From: Catellatospora sp. IY07-71
GTDB lineage: Bacteria > Actinomycetota > Actinomycetes > Mycobacteriales > Micromonosporaceae
DNA: 64,000 bases
Assembly (NCBI RefSeq): GCF_018326265.1
Contig: NZ_AP023360.1
Span: 3,339,501-3,403,500 of the forward strand
Direction of reading: 5' to 3'
The notes below the pieces were generated by a model. It was not told the origin of the DNA. It saw nothing but the letters and a program-made list of their open reading frames with translations, and did no database searches. Numbering within the stretch: the stretch's first letter is position 1; each line of letters opens with the position of its first letter. This document shows, in pieces, positions 14,074 to 36,396 of the stretch. The translations under genes and the position numbers were made by a program.

Positions 14074-15402
14074 GTGTCCGATGTGGCTGGTGGTGTGGTG
14101 GTGCAGGCGTATCGTTTCGCCCTGGACCCGTCCCCGGCCCAGGACCGTGACCTGCACCGGCATGCCGGTGCGGGCCGGTTCGCGTTCAACTGGGCCCTGG
14201 CCGCGGTGCGTGCCAACCTTGGCCAGCGCGCCGCTGAACGCACCTACGGCCTGGACAGTGAGCAGCTGACGCCCGCGCTGGGCTGGACCCTGCCCGCGTT
14301 GCGCCGCGCGTGGAACACGGCCAAGCCTGAGGTGGCGCCGTGGTGGGGGCAGTGCTCGAAAGAGGCGTTCAACACCGGACTGGATGGTTTGGCGCGGGCG
14401 CTGGGCAACTGGTCGGCGTCGCGATCGGGCCGCCGTGCCGGGCCGAGGGTGGGGTTTCCGCGGTTTCGGTCGCGGCGGCGGGTGACGCCGTCGGTGCGGT
14501 TCACCACCGGCACGATCCGCGTGGAGGACACCCGTCACCATGTGACCCTGCCCCGGCTGGGCCGCATCCGCACCCACGAGTCGACCCGCAAGCTCGCCCG
14601 GCGTCTGCACGCGGGCACGGCCCGGATCATGTCGGCCACCGTCCGCCACACCGGCGGGCGCTGGCACGTATCGTTCACCGTGCAGATCACCCGCACTGCG
14701 CGCACCGCGGCCCGCCCGCAGGCCACCGTAGGCGTCGATCTCGGGATCGCGAACCTCGCGGTGCTGTCGACCGGGCAGGTCGTGCCCAACCCCCGCCACC
14801 TGACCCGCGCACAAGCGCGGCTGCGCACAGCTGCCCGGACCCTGTCCCGGCGGCAGGGTCCCGACCGGCGCACAGGACAGCAGCCCTCCCGGCGCTGGCA
14901 GCAGGCCAATACGCGCCTGGCCCGCGCACACGCCCGCGTGGCGAACCTGCGCGCCGACGGCCTGCACAAACTCACCACCAGCCTGGCCGCGACCTACGGC
15001 ACGATCGTGGTCGAGGACCTCAACGTCGCTGGGATGATCCGCAACCGGCGCCTGGCCCGGCACATCGCCGACGCCGGGTGGGCCACCCTGCGCCGTCAAC
15101 TTGAGTACAAGATCGCATGGAACGGCGGGCGGGTCGTGGTCGCCGACCGGTGGTTCGCTTCCTCGAAGACCTGTTCGTCCTGCGGCGTGGCGAAACCCAA
15201 GCTGCCGCTGCGGAAACGGACCTACACCTGCCAGCATTGCGGCCTCAGCTTGGACCGTGATCTGAATGCCGCGATCAACCTGCAGCAGTACGTCGCCCGG
15301 AGTGGCTGGGAGACGCTAAACGGTTGTGGAGCCGACCGTAAGACCACCCCCGTGGTGGCAGGTGGCTGTGAAACGACCACCCCGCACCTCCCTGGTGGGT
15401 AA
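14074..15402 (+). CDS. tnpB: TnpB RNA-guided endonuclease, IS200/IS605-type, without TnpA
   Basis: A 442-aa TnpB. An N-terminal wedge/recognition region (AYRFALDPSPAQDRDLHRHA; FNWALAAVRANL) precedes a split RuvC domain. Catalytic D lies in VGVDLGIANLAVLS near residue 220, E in TIVVEDLNVAGM near 315 and the final D in LDRDLNAAINLQQY near 400. The zinc ribbon is CSSCG / CQHCG. All catalytic residues are present, so the nuclease is probably active. No TnpA transposase is adjacent. The GTG at 14074 is the farthest plausible start; in-frame GTGs at 14086-14101 are alternatives. The 3' end runs into the guide-RNA scaffold. Confidence 0.92.
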   Translation: MSDVAGGVVVQAYRFALDPSPAQDRDLHRHAGAGRFAFNWALAAVRANLGQRAAERTYGLDSEQLTPALGWTLPALRRAWNTAKPEVAPWWGQCSKEAFNTGLDGLARALGNWSASRSGRRAGPRVGFPRFRSRRRVTPSVRFTTGTIRVEDTRHHVTLPRLGRIRTHESTRKLARRLHAGTARIMSATVRHTGGRWHVSFTVQITRTARTAARPQATVGVDLGIANLAVLSTGQVVPNPRHLTRAQARLRTAARTLSRRQGPDRRTGQQPSRRWQQANTRLARAHARVANLRADGLHKLTTSLAATYGTIVVEDLNVAGMIRNRRLARHIADAGWATLRRQLEYKIAWNGGRVVVADRWFASSKTCSSCGVAKPKLPLRKRTYTCQHCGLSLDRDLNAAINLQQYVARSGWETLNGCGADRKTTPVVAGGCETTTPHLPGG

Positions 15403-15464
15403 GTCGGGGACCGTCGGCTGGCAACGGCCGACTGCCACACGAGTGCTCACCAGAGCTCACTCAA
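15403..15464 (+). ncRNA. Right-end guide RNA (reRNA/omegaRNA) scaffold of TnpB copy 1
   Basis: Immediately downstream of tnpB are two hairpins: GTCGGC...GCCGAC (about 15416-15433) and a terminal GAGTGCTC-ACCA-GAG-CT-CACTC stem (15441-15462). The sequence then ends ...CTCAA. By analogy with IS605-family elements the element terminates at about 15464, and the guide would begin TTGCAACGGGCGCGGG. The scaffold probably starts inside the 3' part of the gene. The boundary is inferred. Confidence 0.6.
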
Positions 15465-33962: not shown

Positions 33963-35278
33963 GCCGCAGCGAACCGATGACCTCCGGCGAGCAGCTGAGC
34001 CGCCGCGATGTGACCACCCGGGGTGACCGGCCGAGCCGTGGTGACCTGCGGCGGCCGCGTGGACGCGGCATCCACCGCGCCCCGTCCGCCGCCGCGCGGC
34101 TGCTGCAGCTGACCTGTGTCGTGCCCGTGCTGCGGCTGGCCCGGGCCACCGCGCCGCCCCGTCCGCTGTTCGCCGCCGGGGTGTGGCCGGGCCGCCCCAG
34201 CGCCGCGCGGGTCATGCGCCCGGCCCGGGACGCGGCGGCGGTCGCCGTGGTGTGCGCCCTGCTCGCGGTCCCGGCCGCGTGCGGCGGTCCGGAAGCCGCT
34301 CCGGCCGCGCAGGCGCCGGCTAGCGGGGAGGCGTCACCCGCCGCCGCGATGCCCTGGCCGTGGTCGGCCGCGAGCGCGACCGCGTGCCCGCAGCCCACCG
34401 TCACCGTCGGCGACGCCGGCGAGCTGGCCGACGCGCTGGACGACGCGAAGCCCGGCGACAGCATCCGGCTGCGCGACGGCGTGTACCGGGGCCGGTTCAC
34501 CGCGGAGGAGCCGGGCACGAAGGACCGGCCGATCCACCTGTGCGGCGGGCCGGGGGCGGTGCTGGACGGCGGCGGCACGAGCAAGGGGTACGCGCTGCAC
34601 CTCGACGGGGCCGACCACTGGCGGCTGACCGGGTTCACCGTGCGCAACGCGCAGAAGGGCGTCATGCTCGACGACACCAGCCACGCGGTGCTCACCGAGC
34701 TGACCGTCGAGCACGTCGGCGACGAGGCGATCCACCTGCGCCGCTTCAGCTCCGACAACGTGGTGCAGACCAGCACGGTGCGCGACACCGGCCTGCGCAA
34801 ACCCTCCTACGGCGAGGGGATCTACATCGGCACGGCGAAGTCGAACTGGTGCGACCTGACCGGCTGCAAGCCTGACCGCAGCGACCGCAACGTGATCCGC
34901 GGCAACCGGATCAGCGACACCACCGCCGAACCGGTCGACATCAAGGAGGGCACCACCGGCGGGCAGCTGACCGGCAACACCTTCGACGGCGCCGCGATGA
35001 CCGGCTCGTACGCCGACTCGTGGGTCGACGTGAAGGGCAACGGCTGGCTGATCAAGGGCAACACCGGGCGGAACTCGCGCGGCGACGGCTTCCAGACGCA
35101 CCGCGCCGCCGACGGCTGGGGCGATGACAACGTGTTCACCGCCAACACCGCCGACGTCGACGGGCCGGGCCTGGGCTTCCACCTCACCCCCGTCGCCGAC
35201 AACGTCGTGGCCTGTGACAACACCGTCACCAGGGCAGCCGAGGGCTTCGCCAACACCGACTGCCGCCGGACATGGTGA
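33959..35278 (+). CDS. Secreted parallel beta-helix protein, candidate polysaccharide-modifying enzyme
   Basis: A 439-aa protein. A long basic N-terminus of about 85 residues precedes a lipobox-like hydrophobic segment (VAVVCALLAVPAACGG). A beta-helix (about 140-430) follows, opening with TVTVGDAGELADALDDAKPG and IRLRDGVYRGRFTAEEPG, as in secreted pectate-lyase-like and chondroitinase-B-like proteins. Coils include WRLTGFTVRNAQKGVMLDDT and DEAIHLRRFSSDNVVQTSTV. Catalytic residues cannot be assigned by eye. The ATGA overlap couples it to the previous gene. A perfect hairpin right after the stop ends the operon. Confidence 0.8.
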   Translation: MSRSEPMTSGEQLSRRDVTTRGDRPSRGDLRRPRGRGIHRAPSAAARLLQLTCVVPVLRLARATAPPRPLFAAGVWPGRPSAARVMRPARDAAAVAVVCALLAVPAACGGPEAAPAAQAPASGEASPAAAMPWPWSAASATACPQPTVTVGDAGELADALDDAKPGDSIRLRDGVYRGRFTAEEPGTKDRPIHLCGGPGAVLDGGGTSKGYALHLDGADHWRLTGFTVRNAQKGVMLDDTSHAVLTELTVEHVGDEAIHLRRFSSDNVVQTSTVRDTGLRKPSYGEGIYIGTAKSNWCDLTGCKPDRSDRNVIRGNRISDTTAEPVDIKEGTTGGQLTGNTFDGAAMTGSYADSWVDVKGNGWLIKGNTGRNSRGDGFQTHRAADGWGDDNVFTANTADVDGPGLGFHLTPVADNVVACDNTVTRAAEGFANTDCRRTW

Positions 35279-35308
35279 GGCCCGGGGGAATGTCCATCCC
35301 CCGGGCCT
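35278..35308. terminator. Bidirectional terminator hairpin
   Basis: Perfect 12-bp stem AGGCCCGGGGGA / TCCCCCGGGCCT with a 7-nt loop. It lies directly after the plus-strand beta-helix gene and also downstream of the minus-strand permuted tRNA-like genes, so it can close both units. Confidence 0.8.
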
Positions 35309-35368
35309 CGCTGTGCCACCGAATTGCACACGCCGGCACGTTTAACCGCACAGGTCAGTCGTCATCTC

Positions 35369-35439
35369 TCCCGCGTCCTGCCTATTGGACTACCGCCCCG
35401 TGGAGAGGAGCGGGCCGGACTTGAACCGGCAACTCGGGA
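35369..35439 (-). tRNA. Circularly permuted tRNA-like gene 2 (3' half before 5' half)
   Basis: Order on the minus strand: anticodon-stem 3' strand TCCCG (35439-35435), variable loop AGTT, T arm GCCGG-TTCAAGT-CCGGC (35430-35414), acceptor 3' strand CCGCTCC (35413-35407), U73 and a 6-nt linker. Then come acceptor 5' strand GGGGCGG (35399-35393), UA, D arm GTCC-AATAGGCA-GGAC (35390-35375), G26 and anticodon-stem 5' strand CGGGA (35373-35369). Joined as a tRNA, acceptor (7 bp, G3-U70 wobble), D (4), anticodon (5) and T (5) stems all pair. U8, A14, G18G19, A21, the A15-U48 pair and TTCAA are present. The anticodon loop is where the gene is opened, so the anticodon is unassigned. Confidence 0.75.
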
Positions 35440-35516
35440 GCCCTTTCGCCCGTACGTGGTCGATCCGGCGATCGGCGGCGAATGCTGAGCTTCGAGCGAG
35501 AGTCTGAGTTTGATAC

Positions 35517-35592
35517 GCGGCTGCCTCTGCCAGGCTTGGGCTACCTCCGCAGGTGGTGCAGAGGGCGGGATTCGAACCCGCACTGGGACCGC
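35517..35592 (-). tRNA. Circularly permuted tRNA-like gene 1 (3' half before 5' half)
   Basis: Order on the minus strand: anticodon-stem 3' strand GCGGT (35592-35588), variable loop CCCAGT, T arm GCGGG-TTCGAAT-CCCGC (35581-35565), acceptor 3' strand CCTCTGC (35564-35558), A73, encoded CCA (35556-35554) and CCT. Then come acceptor 5' strand GCGGAGG (35550-35544), UA, D arm with GCC/GGC stem and a GG-containing loop, and anticodon-stem 5' strand GCCGC (35521-35517). The acceptor pairs over 7 bp with G3-U70. The anticodon stem pairs over 5 bp with one wobble and the T stem is perfect. A normal-order reading fails: no matching 5' acceptor strand exists upstream. Confidence 0.72.
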
Positions 35593-35636
35593 GTTCGTCA
35601 GCTTCGGCTTCAGCTTCAGCTTGCGCTCCTCGCGCA

Positions 35637-35656
35637 CCCCCGCCCTCCGGCGGGGG
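35637..35656 (-). terminator. Hairpin between the 243-aa gene and the permuted tRNA-like genes
   Basis: Perfect 8-bp stem CCCCCGCC / GGCGGGGG with a 4-nt loop, 8 nt after the upstream gene's stop codon. No T-run follows, so it may be an attenuator, an RNA-stability element or a processing boundary rather than a full stop. Confidence 0.55.
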
Positions 35657-35664
35657 AGTCTGGG

Positions 35665-36396
35665 TCAGGCGAACAGGTAGCCGAAGACCCGGTCGCCGAC
35701 GCGCTGGTCGACGGCCTCGGCGTTGTTGGCCTCCTCGCGGGCGAACTTGACCGCCTGCTGCAGCTTCTCCACCCGCTCCAGCAGCGTGGACACCCGCTTG
35801 GCCGGCAGCGCGCCGGAGAACTTCACCGTGGTCCAGTAGCCCACCGCGATGTCCTCGTAGTACACCTCGACCTGGGCCGGGTGCTTCTCGGTCGCCTCGG
35901 CCTTGACGTGGTTGCGGGGCACCTTCTTGGTCCGGATGGTGCGCACCGGCTCGGTCGACCAGCAGTCGGCCGACTCGCTGAACACCCACGACTCGGCGGC
36001 GTCGAGCACTGGCAGCTTCTTGACGAAGGTGTGCAGGTCGGTGAGCTGCTTCTCCAGGAACAGCAGGTACGTCACCGGCACGTCGGACAGCAGCACCCGG
36101 TCGTCGACCTTCACGTCGGCCTTGGCCACGCAGTTCGTCGAGTCCTTGGTCGCGGTGACGTCGAACAGCCGGGTCAGCGTGGTGCCGATCTGGCGCAGCA
36201 CGTCCTCGGCGCGGGTCTGCACCTTGGTCGACTCGGGCGGCAGCTGCTCGCCCTCCTCGTCCTTGGCCTGGTACGTCCGCGAGATGCCGGACAGCAGCGC
36301 CTGCTTCTGCACGGCGTGGTGGGCCTCGGTCAGGTCCTGGAACGAGCGGGACTTGACGCCCTTCTCCACCGCGATGATCTGGTTCAGCTTCGCCAT
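35665..36396 (-). CDS. Conserved actinobacterial protein of unknown function, upstream of permuted tRNA-like genes
   Basis: A 243-aa soluble protein with no signal peptide, transmembrane segment or recognised catalytic motif. It is rich in charged residues and looks mixed alpha/beta: MAKLNQIIAVEKGVKSRSFQ, DLTEAHHAVQKQALLSGISR, a central TYLLFLEKQLTDLHTFVKKL helix, VRTIRTKKVPRNHVKAEATE and a C-terminal coiled helix (RVSTLLERVEKLQQAVKFAR). Proteins with this start are, as far as I recall, conserved in streptomycetes and micromonosporas without assigned function. ATG 36396 has GGGAGGA upstream. Basic patches would allow RNA binding. The two permuted tRNA-like genes follow 73 bp downstream on the same strand, so an RNA-linked role is inference from position. 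Confidence 0.75.
   Translation of the reverse strand: MAKLNQIIAVEKGVKSRSFQDLTEAHHAVQKQALLSGISRTYQAKDEEGEQLPPESTKVQTRAEDVLRQIGTTLTRLFDVTATKDSTNCVAKADVKVDDRVLLSDVPVTYLLFLEKQLTDLHTFVKKLPVLDAAESWVFSESADCWSTEPVRTIRTKKVPRNHVKAEATEKHPAQVEVYYEDIAVGYWTTVKFSGALPAKRVSTLLERVEKLQQAVKFAREEANNAEAVDQRVGDRVFGYLFA

What the first reader, a model, noticed from the sequence alone, without database searches (positions are those of the whole stretch)
35369..35592. Two circularly permuted tRNA-like genes in tandem
Two tRNA T arms with 3' acceptor strands are each followed, not preceded, by their own 5' acceptor strand and D arm. Joined in tRNA order, the downstream 5' half pairs with the upstream 3' half in both cases: acceptor 7/7 (one G3-U70 wobble each), anticodon stem 5/5, T stem 5/5. 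Copy 2 also keeps a perfect D stem, U8, A14, G18G19, A21 and A15-U48. A conventional reading fails because no 5' acceptor strand matching CCTCTGC or CCGCTCC lies upstream. Permuted tRNA genes are known in some algae and archaea; I do not know of an established bacterial case with a complete canonical core. Two independent full matches in 225 bp make chance unlikely.
Basis: partly seen in the sequence, partly recalled or inferred. Interest (0 to 1): 0.95.

Follow-up and report, generated by a model that had tools for sequence, protein, structure and literature searches.

The report
Twin permuted tRNA mimics beside DUF7873
What looked like two scrambled tRNA genes is one structured noncoding RNA carrying two tRNA look-alikes, of the kind known from bacterial Y RNAs, that travels with one uncharacterised protein family through soil bacteria and phages and is probably part of a widespread RNA-protein machine.

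Summary
On the minus strand (about 35277-35660) two tRNA-like domains each have the T arm and 3' acceptor strand before the 5' acceptor strand and D arm. Re-joined with an invented anticodon loop, both are called tRNAs by ARAGORN; no shuffle gave such a unit.

The interpretation changes. These do not look like tRNA genes awaiting circularisation: acceptor stems are capped by short loops, and the anticodon-position stems run on into long helices without an anticodon loop. Rfam's highest-scoring match for both is YrlA, the bacterial Y RNA, with the same permuted order, but at 27.5 and 23.4 bits (cutoff 69).

The domains cap two arms of one RNA just after a DUF7873 gene (function unknown). A covariance model of arm 2 reaches 58.8 bits or more in exactly the DUF7873 genomes: 24 of 61 relatives, 7 of 396 in the phylum. 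The pair also occurs in phages of Arthrobacter, Gordonia, Rhodococcus, Rhizobium, Vibrio, Klebsiella and cyanobacteria; 10 of 11 phages read have no Ro60 hit.

Verdict: a new variant of the Y RNA kind, double-headed, tied to DUF7873 instead of Ro60. Function is inferred.

The parts
35665..36396 (-). DUF7873 gene (PF25283, 243 aa), just upstream of the RNA; probable protein partner
   Evidence: 398.5 bits, E 1.6e-119; found just upstream of the RNA in all 21 homologous loci (window included) and L031
35277..35660 (-). whole structured RNA (approximate limits; transcript ends not known)
   Evidence: conserved elements; fold
35637..35656 (-). 5' GC-rich hairpin just after the DUF7873 stop codon
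35622..35636 (-). small UGCGC/GCGCA hairpin leading into arm 1
35594..35621 (-). arm 1, 5' strand, with CUGA repeats about 6 nt apart
35589..35593 (-). unit 1 anticodon-position stem, 3' strand CGCGG
35565..35581 (-). unit 1 T arm (GCGGG TTCGAAT CCCGC)
35558..35564 (-). unit 1 acceptor 3' strand CCTCTGC
35551..35557 (-). unit 1 acceptor cap ACCACCT (A73 and CCA encoded)
35544..35550 (-). unit 1 acceptor 5' strand GCGGAGG
35523..35543 (-). unit 1 D arm
35516..35520 (-). unit 1 anticodon-position stem, 5' strand CCGCG
35483..35508 (-). arm 1, 3' strand CUCAGACUCUCGCUCGAAGCUCAGCA, among the most conserved stretches
35458..35480 (-). arm 2, 5' strand outer helices CGCCGCC and CGCCGG, then the conserved internal-loop side AUCGACC
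35449..35457 (-). arm 2, 5' strand inner helix ACGUACGGG (in relatives all 9 pairs show changes on both sides; in the window 8 of 9 pair)
35414..35430 (-). unit 2 T arm (GCCGG TTCAAGT CCGGC)
35407..35413 (-). unit 2 acceptor 3' strand CCGCTCC
35400..35406 (-). unit 2 acceptor cap TCTCCAC
35393..35399 (-). unit 2 acceptor 5' strand GGGGCGG
35375..35392 (-). unit 2 D arm
35346..35354 (-). arm 2, 3' strand inner helix CCUGUGCGG
35339..35345 (-). UUAAACG, strongly conserved internal-loop side (CUUAAACG in most relatives, many phages included)
35315..35336 (-). arm 2, 3' strand outer helices (CCGGCG, CGGUGGC)
35277..35309 (-). 3' hairpin with conserved GGAYA-type loop; in viral contig L181 it is followed by a U run like an intrinsic terminator

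Best explanation
The region encodes one noncoding RNA of roughly 340-420 nt on the minus strand, just after a DUF7873 gene. The linear RNA folds into a 5' hairpin, two long arms and a 3' hairpin. Each arm ends in a tRNA-like domain (T arm, acceptor stem closed by a cap, D arm, and an anticodon-position stem that is the arm itself), the circular permutation seen in bacterial Y RNAs. Shown by computation: the anatomy, the covariation, and the genomic pairing with DUF7873. Inferred: DUF7873 binds the arms and conserved loops and forms an RNP with the RNA, as Ro60 does with Y RNA, while the two tRNA mimics dock proteins that recognise the tRNA elbow (PNPase as in RYPER, tRNA-modifying or tRNA-processing enzymes, or a tRNA nuclease that is decoyed). 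No splicing or circularisation is needed.
For: Anatomy: unconstrained MFE; consensus of 57 non-redundant loci; RNAalifold, 31 pairs, 28 with compensatory changes. Covariation, arm 2, 36 sequences: 96.1% of cells paired against 73.0% in shuffles and 40.6-46.6% when slid; score 0.665 against 0.213; 0 of 500 shuffles reach it. Adding five rows that I had left out changes nothing (41 sequences, 96.2%, 28 of 31 pairs). The arm helices, on which no row was selected, are 96.3% and 90.7% paired. Unit 1 helices 99.6%, 0 of 500. Acceptor test without circularity.

Protein link: model R1 reaches 58.8 bits or more in 24 of 61 relatives, exactly the 24 with DUF7873, and 68.9 bits or more in 7 of 396 phylum genomes, exactly the 7 with DUF7873. 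The samples overlap slightly and the threshold was set after seeing the gap; the best genome without DUF7873 reaches 53.1 and 52.7 bits. In 21 loci from 11 groups no other gene within 4 kb is shared by four or more groups. RNA accompanies DUF7873 in phages down to about 30% protein identity.

Acts in trans: in viral contig L181 the RNA lies upstream of DUF7873 and ends in a hairpin plus U run.

Y RNA kinship: RF02553 has the highest Rfam scores for both units (E 0.0007 and 0.011). RNAs beside Ro60 genes in relatives have the same permuted domain.
Against: No expression or binding data were available. YrlA scores are far below the family cutoff; over the whole genome the YrlA model also hits adjacent ordinary tRNAs (L039); and for unit 1 a 17-nt T-arm match to the tmRNA model has a better E-value (0.0028, 13 bits) than YrlA. 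Two Herpetosiphon loci (L110, L120) have DUF7873 but no RNA by finder or model, and L173 gave only a weak match (E 0.16). DUF7873 is not basic overall (34 K+R against 35 D+E) and its model has no confident structural relative, so RNA binding is not visible from sequence or fold. TROVE genes are commoner in DUF7873 genomes (15 of 24 against 4 of 37), which leaves a role for Ro60 open. Arm 1 helices outside the tRNA-like domain are conserved in sequence more than they covary, and RNAalifold on A3 does not draw them. A3 and A4 took only rows whose acceptors pair at 6 of 7 or better, so the acceptor helix there is not an independent test; one search is.
Confidence: 0.72

Rival explanations
1. Circularly permuted tRNA genes: the precursor is cut at the arms, circularised or ligated at the anticodon, and the cap removed by RNase P and a 3' processing enzyme, giving two working tRNAs.
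For: Complete tRNA-like core and 7/7 acceptors; with an invented anticodon loop ARAGORN calls both units tRNAs; A73 in 86 of 97 unit 1 copies, CCA after it in 43.
Against: No anticodon loop; the anticodon-position stems continue into further helices. Caps of 4 nt occur. CCA in a minority. Unit 1 gone and the arm a simple hairpin in L028, L048, L053. The splicing endonuclease used by archaea and eukaryotes is not known from bacteria (recalled, not searched).
Confidence: 0.04
2. Ordinary Ro60-bound Y RNAs (YrlA and YrlB type) that act in trans with the Ro60 gene elsewhere in the genome; DUF7873 is a passenger.
For: Highest-scoring Rfam match is YrlA; the own genome has a TROVE gene 427 kb away with no Y RNA found near it; TROVE is commoner in DUF7873 genomes.
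Against: The RNA tracks DUF7873. Nine of 24 relatives and 10 of 11 phages with DUF7873 have no TROVE hit (most TROVE matches cover only part of the profile, so absence is soft, and a phage could use the host's Ro60). Ro60-linked Y RNAs exist as separate loci with their own 5' flank, GGTGCGCAG..GGNTACTTC; the shared letters GGTGCGC also occur in many DUF7873 RNAs.
Confidence: 0.12
3. RNA-antidote system: DUF7873 is a toxin (for example one acting on tRNA) and the tRNA-mimicking RNA is its antidote or inhibitor.
For: Two-part unit of protein plus structured RNA, found in bacteria and in phages; the RNA resembles tRNA twice.
Against: No PADLOC hit and no confident fold match; present in all 10 other genomes of the genus examined; no repeat array as in type III systems (recalled); Herpetosiphon has the protein without a recognised RNA.
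Confidence: 0.08
4. Cis-acting 3' untranslated element that only controls or stabilises the DUF7873 message.
For: Nearly always downstream on the same strand.
Against: RNA upstream of the gene in L181 with its own terminator-like end and about 650 nt downstream in L169; size and double tRNA mimicry exceed what a stabiliser needs (inference).
Confidence: 0.06

Closest known systems
Bacterial Y RNA, YrlA (Rfam RF02553; review PMC8394870, passages read; Chen 2014 and Wang 2018 not held, recalled only)
   Same: Same permuted order (T arm, acceptor 3' strand, cap, acceptor 5' strand, D arm) on a long stem made by flanking strands (alignment); tRNA mimic docked on a stem.
   Different: Two such domains in one RNA; different stems and loops; scores 27.5 and 23.4 against a cutoff of 69; tied to DUF7873 and not to Ro60.
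rsr-yrlBA-rtcBA locus of Salmonella (PMC7790460, passages read)
   Same: Two Y RNA genes next to the gene of an RNP protein.
   Different: Protein is Ro60 (Rsr), with RtcB and RtcA; here only DUF7873 is shared among the neighbours compared.
Circularly permuted tRNA genes of algae and archaea (PMC3978253, passages read)
   Same: 3' half encoded before 5' half.
   Different: No anticodon loop; no sign of a tRNA product.
Two-piece permuted tmRNA (named in passages of PMC3978253; details recalled)
   Same: tRNA-like domain with permuted halves and an extended anticodon-position helix; protein partner.
   Different: Here a D stem and two domains; only a 17-nt T-arm match to the tmRNA model, 13 bits. 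A tag reading frame was not looked for.

Membership tests
Bacterial Y RNA (YrlA, RF02553) | permuted tRNA-like domain with capped acceptor stem | tested here: met
Bacterial Y RNA (YrlA, RF02553) | score above the curated Rfam cutoff (69 bits) | tested here: not met
   27.5 and 23.4 bits, (Ro60-linked candidates of relatives score 35-40 and also miss it)
Bacterial Y RNA (YrlA, RF02553) | gene next to a Ro60 (TROVE) gene | tested here: not met
   own TROVE gene 427 kb away; neighbour is DUF7873
Bacterial Y RNA (YrlA, RF02553) | Ro60 present in the same genome | tested here: inconclusive
   15 of 24 DUF7873 relatives have a TROVE hit, 9 do not; 1 of 11 phages; TROVE matches are partial
Bacterial Y RNA (YrlA, RF02553) | physical binding by Ro60 | not testable with these tools
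   needs pull-down
Permuted tRNA gene | 3' half before 5' half with matching acceptor | tested here: met
Permuted tRNA gene | anticodon loop formed on joining | tested here: not met
   stems continue as helices
Permuted tRNA gene | bulge-helix-bulge splice motif | not tested
   no dedicated search was run
Permuted tRNA gene | mature tRNA product | not testable with these tools
   no RNA data
tmRNA (RF00023) | match to the tmRNA model above cutoff (47 bits) | tested here: not met
   only 17 nt of the T arm, 13 bits, E 0.0028
DUF7873 (PF25283) | score above the Pfam gathering cutoff (27 bits) | tested here: met
   398.5 bits

The most novel reading that the evidence does not exclude
A Ro60-independent ribonucleoprotein family, present in Actinobacteria and in phages of very different hosts, in which DUF7873 carries an RNA with two tRNA mimics held on two arms. 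The pair could occupy two tRNA sites at once (for example neighbouring ribosomal sites, or two copies of a tRNA-handling enzyme); phages that keep it inside their tRNA gene arrays may use it to control or protect tRNAs during infection.
Probability: 0.5. Interest if true: 0.88.

Novelty: new variant of a known kind. Interest (0 to 1): 0.8.

Why it matters
Y RNAs are known as partners of Ro60. Here the same permuted tRNA mimic appears twice in one RNA, with another protein, and in phages of which 10 of 11 have no Ro60 hit. That would make tRNA mimicry by permuted domains a more general building principle of bacterial and phage RNPs. It gives a DUF a testable partner and function, and adds what seems to be an undescribed RNA class to phage tRNA arrays. 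ARAGORN in its normal mode misses such domains.

Tried and rejected
Ordinary tRNA or tmRNA: ARAGORN none in the window; Rfam at gathering finds only an unrelated transposase-linked RNA in the window. Conventional order across the two units: 0 of 97 loci reach 7/7. Protein-coding reading of the region: set aside by eye because the alignments have gaps out of frame; not formally tested. YrlA model alone as proof: rejected, since at E up to 10 it rings in 13 of 14 control genomes and hits adjacent tRNAs. Weaker R1 matches: at E 0.01 or better 38 of 61 relatives have some match. Of matches of 42-53 bits in the phylum sample, the three that I checked for tRNAs (L220, L221, L222) span tandem tRNA-Asn or tRNA-Gly pairs, and three others lie beside TROVE genes. 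G3-U70 as an alanine signal: not conserved. First two versions of the finder that does not use acceptor pairing mis-set the D arm and were replaced; the relaxed finder also printed three hits that look spurious (L191, L192, L198). Protein families: no PHROG or PADLOC hit; no solved relative by sequence or fold (no match at E 0.001; 3kdq chain A, function unknown, probability 0.60). Viral fold library: no match at E 0.001; Vibrio phage Vp_R1 A0A2H5BQ40 has probability 0.99 but E 0.044, not followed. Promoter and terminator pattern scan: nothing. Literature searches; no paper in the held library contains 'DUF7873'.

Full report
OBSERVATION. The finding is on the minus strand. Two units in tandem each run T arm, acceptor 3' strand, 7-nt spacer, acceptor 5' strand, D arm. 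Both acceptors pair 7/7 with one G3-U70. Neither 60 resamplings of the window nor 100,000 of the region gave one such unit. Put back in tRNA order with an invented anticodon loop, ARAGORN calls both tRNAs with each of three loops tried, and neither without a loop; in place it finds none.

CONSERVATION. The 321-nt region matches all 10 other genomes of the genus that were examined (E 5.1e-74 or better) and 10 of 26 further members of the family at E 1.8e-11 or better. In all 21 of these loci (window included), and in L031, a gene of family DUF7873 lies just upstream; in the window it is 35665-36396 minus.

ONE RNA, TWO ARMS. Sequence after DUF7873 in Micromonosporaceae and Streptomyces shows one conserved RNA: 5' hairpin, GAGCGCAAGCUGA repeat strand, unit 1, a highly conserved middle stretch, unit 2, a CUUAAACG strand, and a 3' hairpin. 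Alignment of 48 loci, phage contigs included, keeps this order. The consensus fold of 57 non-redundant loci gives arm 1 (GCUGA/UCAGC, CUG/CAG, AGC/GCU, CUGA/UCAG) and arm 2 (GCCGCC with GGGUGGC-type, CGCCGG with CYGGCG, and a 9-bp inner helix). RNAalifold on 36 arm 2 sequences finds 31 pairs, 28 with compensatory changes, in the permuted arrangement; counting gives 96.1% paired cells against 73.0% in shuffles and at most 46.6% when slid. With the five rows first left out the values are 96.2%, 72.4% and at most 46.5%. Unit 1 helices give 99.6% against 85.6%, but RNAalifold on those 33 arm 1 sequences draws only the tRNA-like domain and not the arm. The unconstrained fold of the window's own RNA shows both arms. 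A hairpin follows unit 2 in 92 of 92 loci examined and holds a GGAYA- or GGCYA-type loop in 80 (no control was run for this).

TEST WITHOUT CIRCULARITY. Units were located by T arm and D arm only. Of 155 distinct loci (159 plus 8 further phage records, minus duplicates; the bacterial loci are the best 80 of a capped list plus those of the genome search) 144 gave units: 242 units, 229 with 7/7 acceptors. Among 107 different acceptor combinations 94 are 7/7, against 1.5% for mixed strands. The anticodon-position stem (best of 18 registers) is 5/5 in 86 of 97 unit 1 and 71 of 97 unit 2, against 68 of 1940 and 172 of 1940 control draws. Of the 11 loci without a unit, model R1 gives a match at E below 0.001 in 8 (L064, L116, L141, L169, L180, L181, L193, L198; in L181 upstream of the gene, in L193 about 2 kb downstream), not in L110, L120 and L173. 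Many loci have one unit by this finder (47); part of that is its D-loop limit, which the window itself shows, and part is real loss: of 22 single units that look like unit 2, 14 have no T arm before them.

PAIRING WITH DUF7873. Model R1 (arm 2) over 61 relatives: 58.8 bits or more in 24 genomes, the same 24 that carry DUF7873. Over 396 genomes of the phylum: 68.9 bits or more in 7, the same 7 that carry DUF7873. The best genomes without DUF7873 reach 53.1 and 52.7 bits; the threshold was read off this gap, and a few genomes are in both samples. In 21 loci from 11 groups no other gene within 4 kb is shared by four or more groups. Eleven phage records were read: Arthrobacter Mimi, Gordonia Fryberger and Phendrix, Rhodococcus NiceHouse, Pseudanabaena Pam2 and PA-SR01, Microcoleus My-WqHQDG, Rhizobium TM30 and Y1_11, Vibrio K479, Klebsiella KpLz-2_45. 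The relaxed finder shows a permuted unit in 10 of the 11 (not in the Microcoleus phage) and two units in Mimi, Phendrix, NiceHouse, Pam2 and KpLz-2_45. R1 also matches twice in Fryberger and once, 34.7 bits, in the Microcoleus phage. In Mimi, Phendrix, NiceHouse and TM30 the pair lies inside or beside a tRNA array.

NOT TRNA GENES. There is no anticodon loop: the stem is the arm. Caps are mostly 6-8 nt for unit 2 and 4-48 nt for unit 1; two 2-nt values belong to mis-set units in L157 and L195. CCA follows nucleotide 73 in 43 of 97 unit 1 and 18 of 97 unit 2. L028, L048 and L053 lack unit 1 and their arm folds into a simple hairpin; in L031 a longer, degenerate structure remains. In L181 the RNA precedes the gene and ends in a hairpin with U run, so it can be its own transcription unit. 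A bulge-helix-bulge motif was not searched for.

Y RNA KINSHIP. The two highest-scoring Rfam matches of the region are YrlA hits, whose consensus line shows the same permuted order. They are sub-threshold, a short tmRNA T-arm match has a better E-value than the second, and the YrlA model also hits adjacent tRNAs, so the link rests on architecture. In relatives, R1 also finds permuted domains beside TROVE genes, one or two per locus in L205-L207, with a flank of their own; these look like Ro60-linked Y RNAs. TROVE is in 15 of 24 DUF7873 genomes and 4 of 37 others (not corrected for phylogeny), and in 1 of 11 phages. The own genome has one TROVE gene without a detectable Y RNA in 13 kb around it. 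Ro60 is thus not adjacent and not always found, but a contribution in trans is not excluded.

PROTEIN. AlphaFold2 gives a confident monomer (mean pLDDT 91.6, pTM 0.68), with long helices and a beta region holding the conserved NHVKAEAT..HPAQV stretch. No confident fold or sequence relative. Net charge is near neutral.

MECHANISM. Shown by computation: RNA anatomy and genomic pairing. Inferred from Y RNA work (review PMC8394870, passages read: stem binds Rsr, tRNA-like domain binds PNPase and is modified by DusA and TruB): DUF7873 holds the stems, the mimics recruit elbow-binding proteins. A competitive-inhibitor role towards an anticodon nuclease has been proposed, not tested, for YrlA (PMC7790460, passages read).

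NOVELTY. Within the held literature and libraries I found no description of this RNA: no Rfam family at gathering in the window or in 13 phage or viral loci except tRNAs and one unrelated RNA, no paper containing 'DUF7873', no PHROG or PADLOC family. Chen 2014, which listed many Y RNA candidates (recalled), could not be read, so overlap with its list cannot be ruled out.

Noticed in passing
L205 and L208 (Micromonosporaceae genomes G030, G036): Ro60 (TROVE) genes with Y RNA-like permuted domains sit next to arrays of about 20 or more ordinary tRNA genes.
   Followed up: partly
L223 / G000:C1:3796000-3809000: The window's own genome has a TROVE gene with no detectable Y RNA within 13 kb, while genome G002, identical over the 321-nt region, has a YrlA-like match (40.3 bits, L224) beside another TROVE gene.
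   Followed up: partly
L194 record NC_070966.1 (Rhizobium phage RHph_TM30): Carries both DUF7873 (from 133927) and a TROVE gene (about 140589-141332), under 8 kb apart, in a tRNA-rich region.
   Followed up: no
L110, L120 (Herpetosiphon): DUF7873 without any recognised two-armed RNA; repeat-like noncoding sequence follows the gene instead (by eye).
   Followed up: partly
window 35277-35309 minus and the same hairpin in relatives: The 3' hairpin keeps a GGAYA/GGCYA loop although its stem sequence varies and it often lacks a U run, which suggests a binding site rather than a plain terminator.
   Followed up: partly
L025, after unit 2: An extra normal-order tRNA-Leu-like sequence follows the RNA by eye.
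   Followed up: no
window 15370-15436 plus: Rfam match Transposase-2 RNA (RF03015), 52.3 bits.
   Followed up: no
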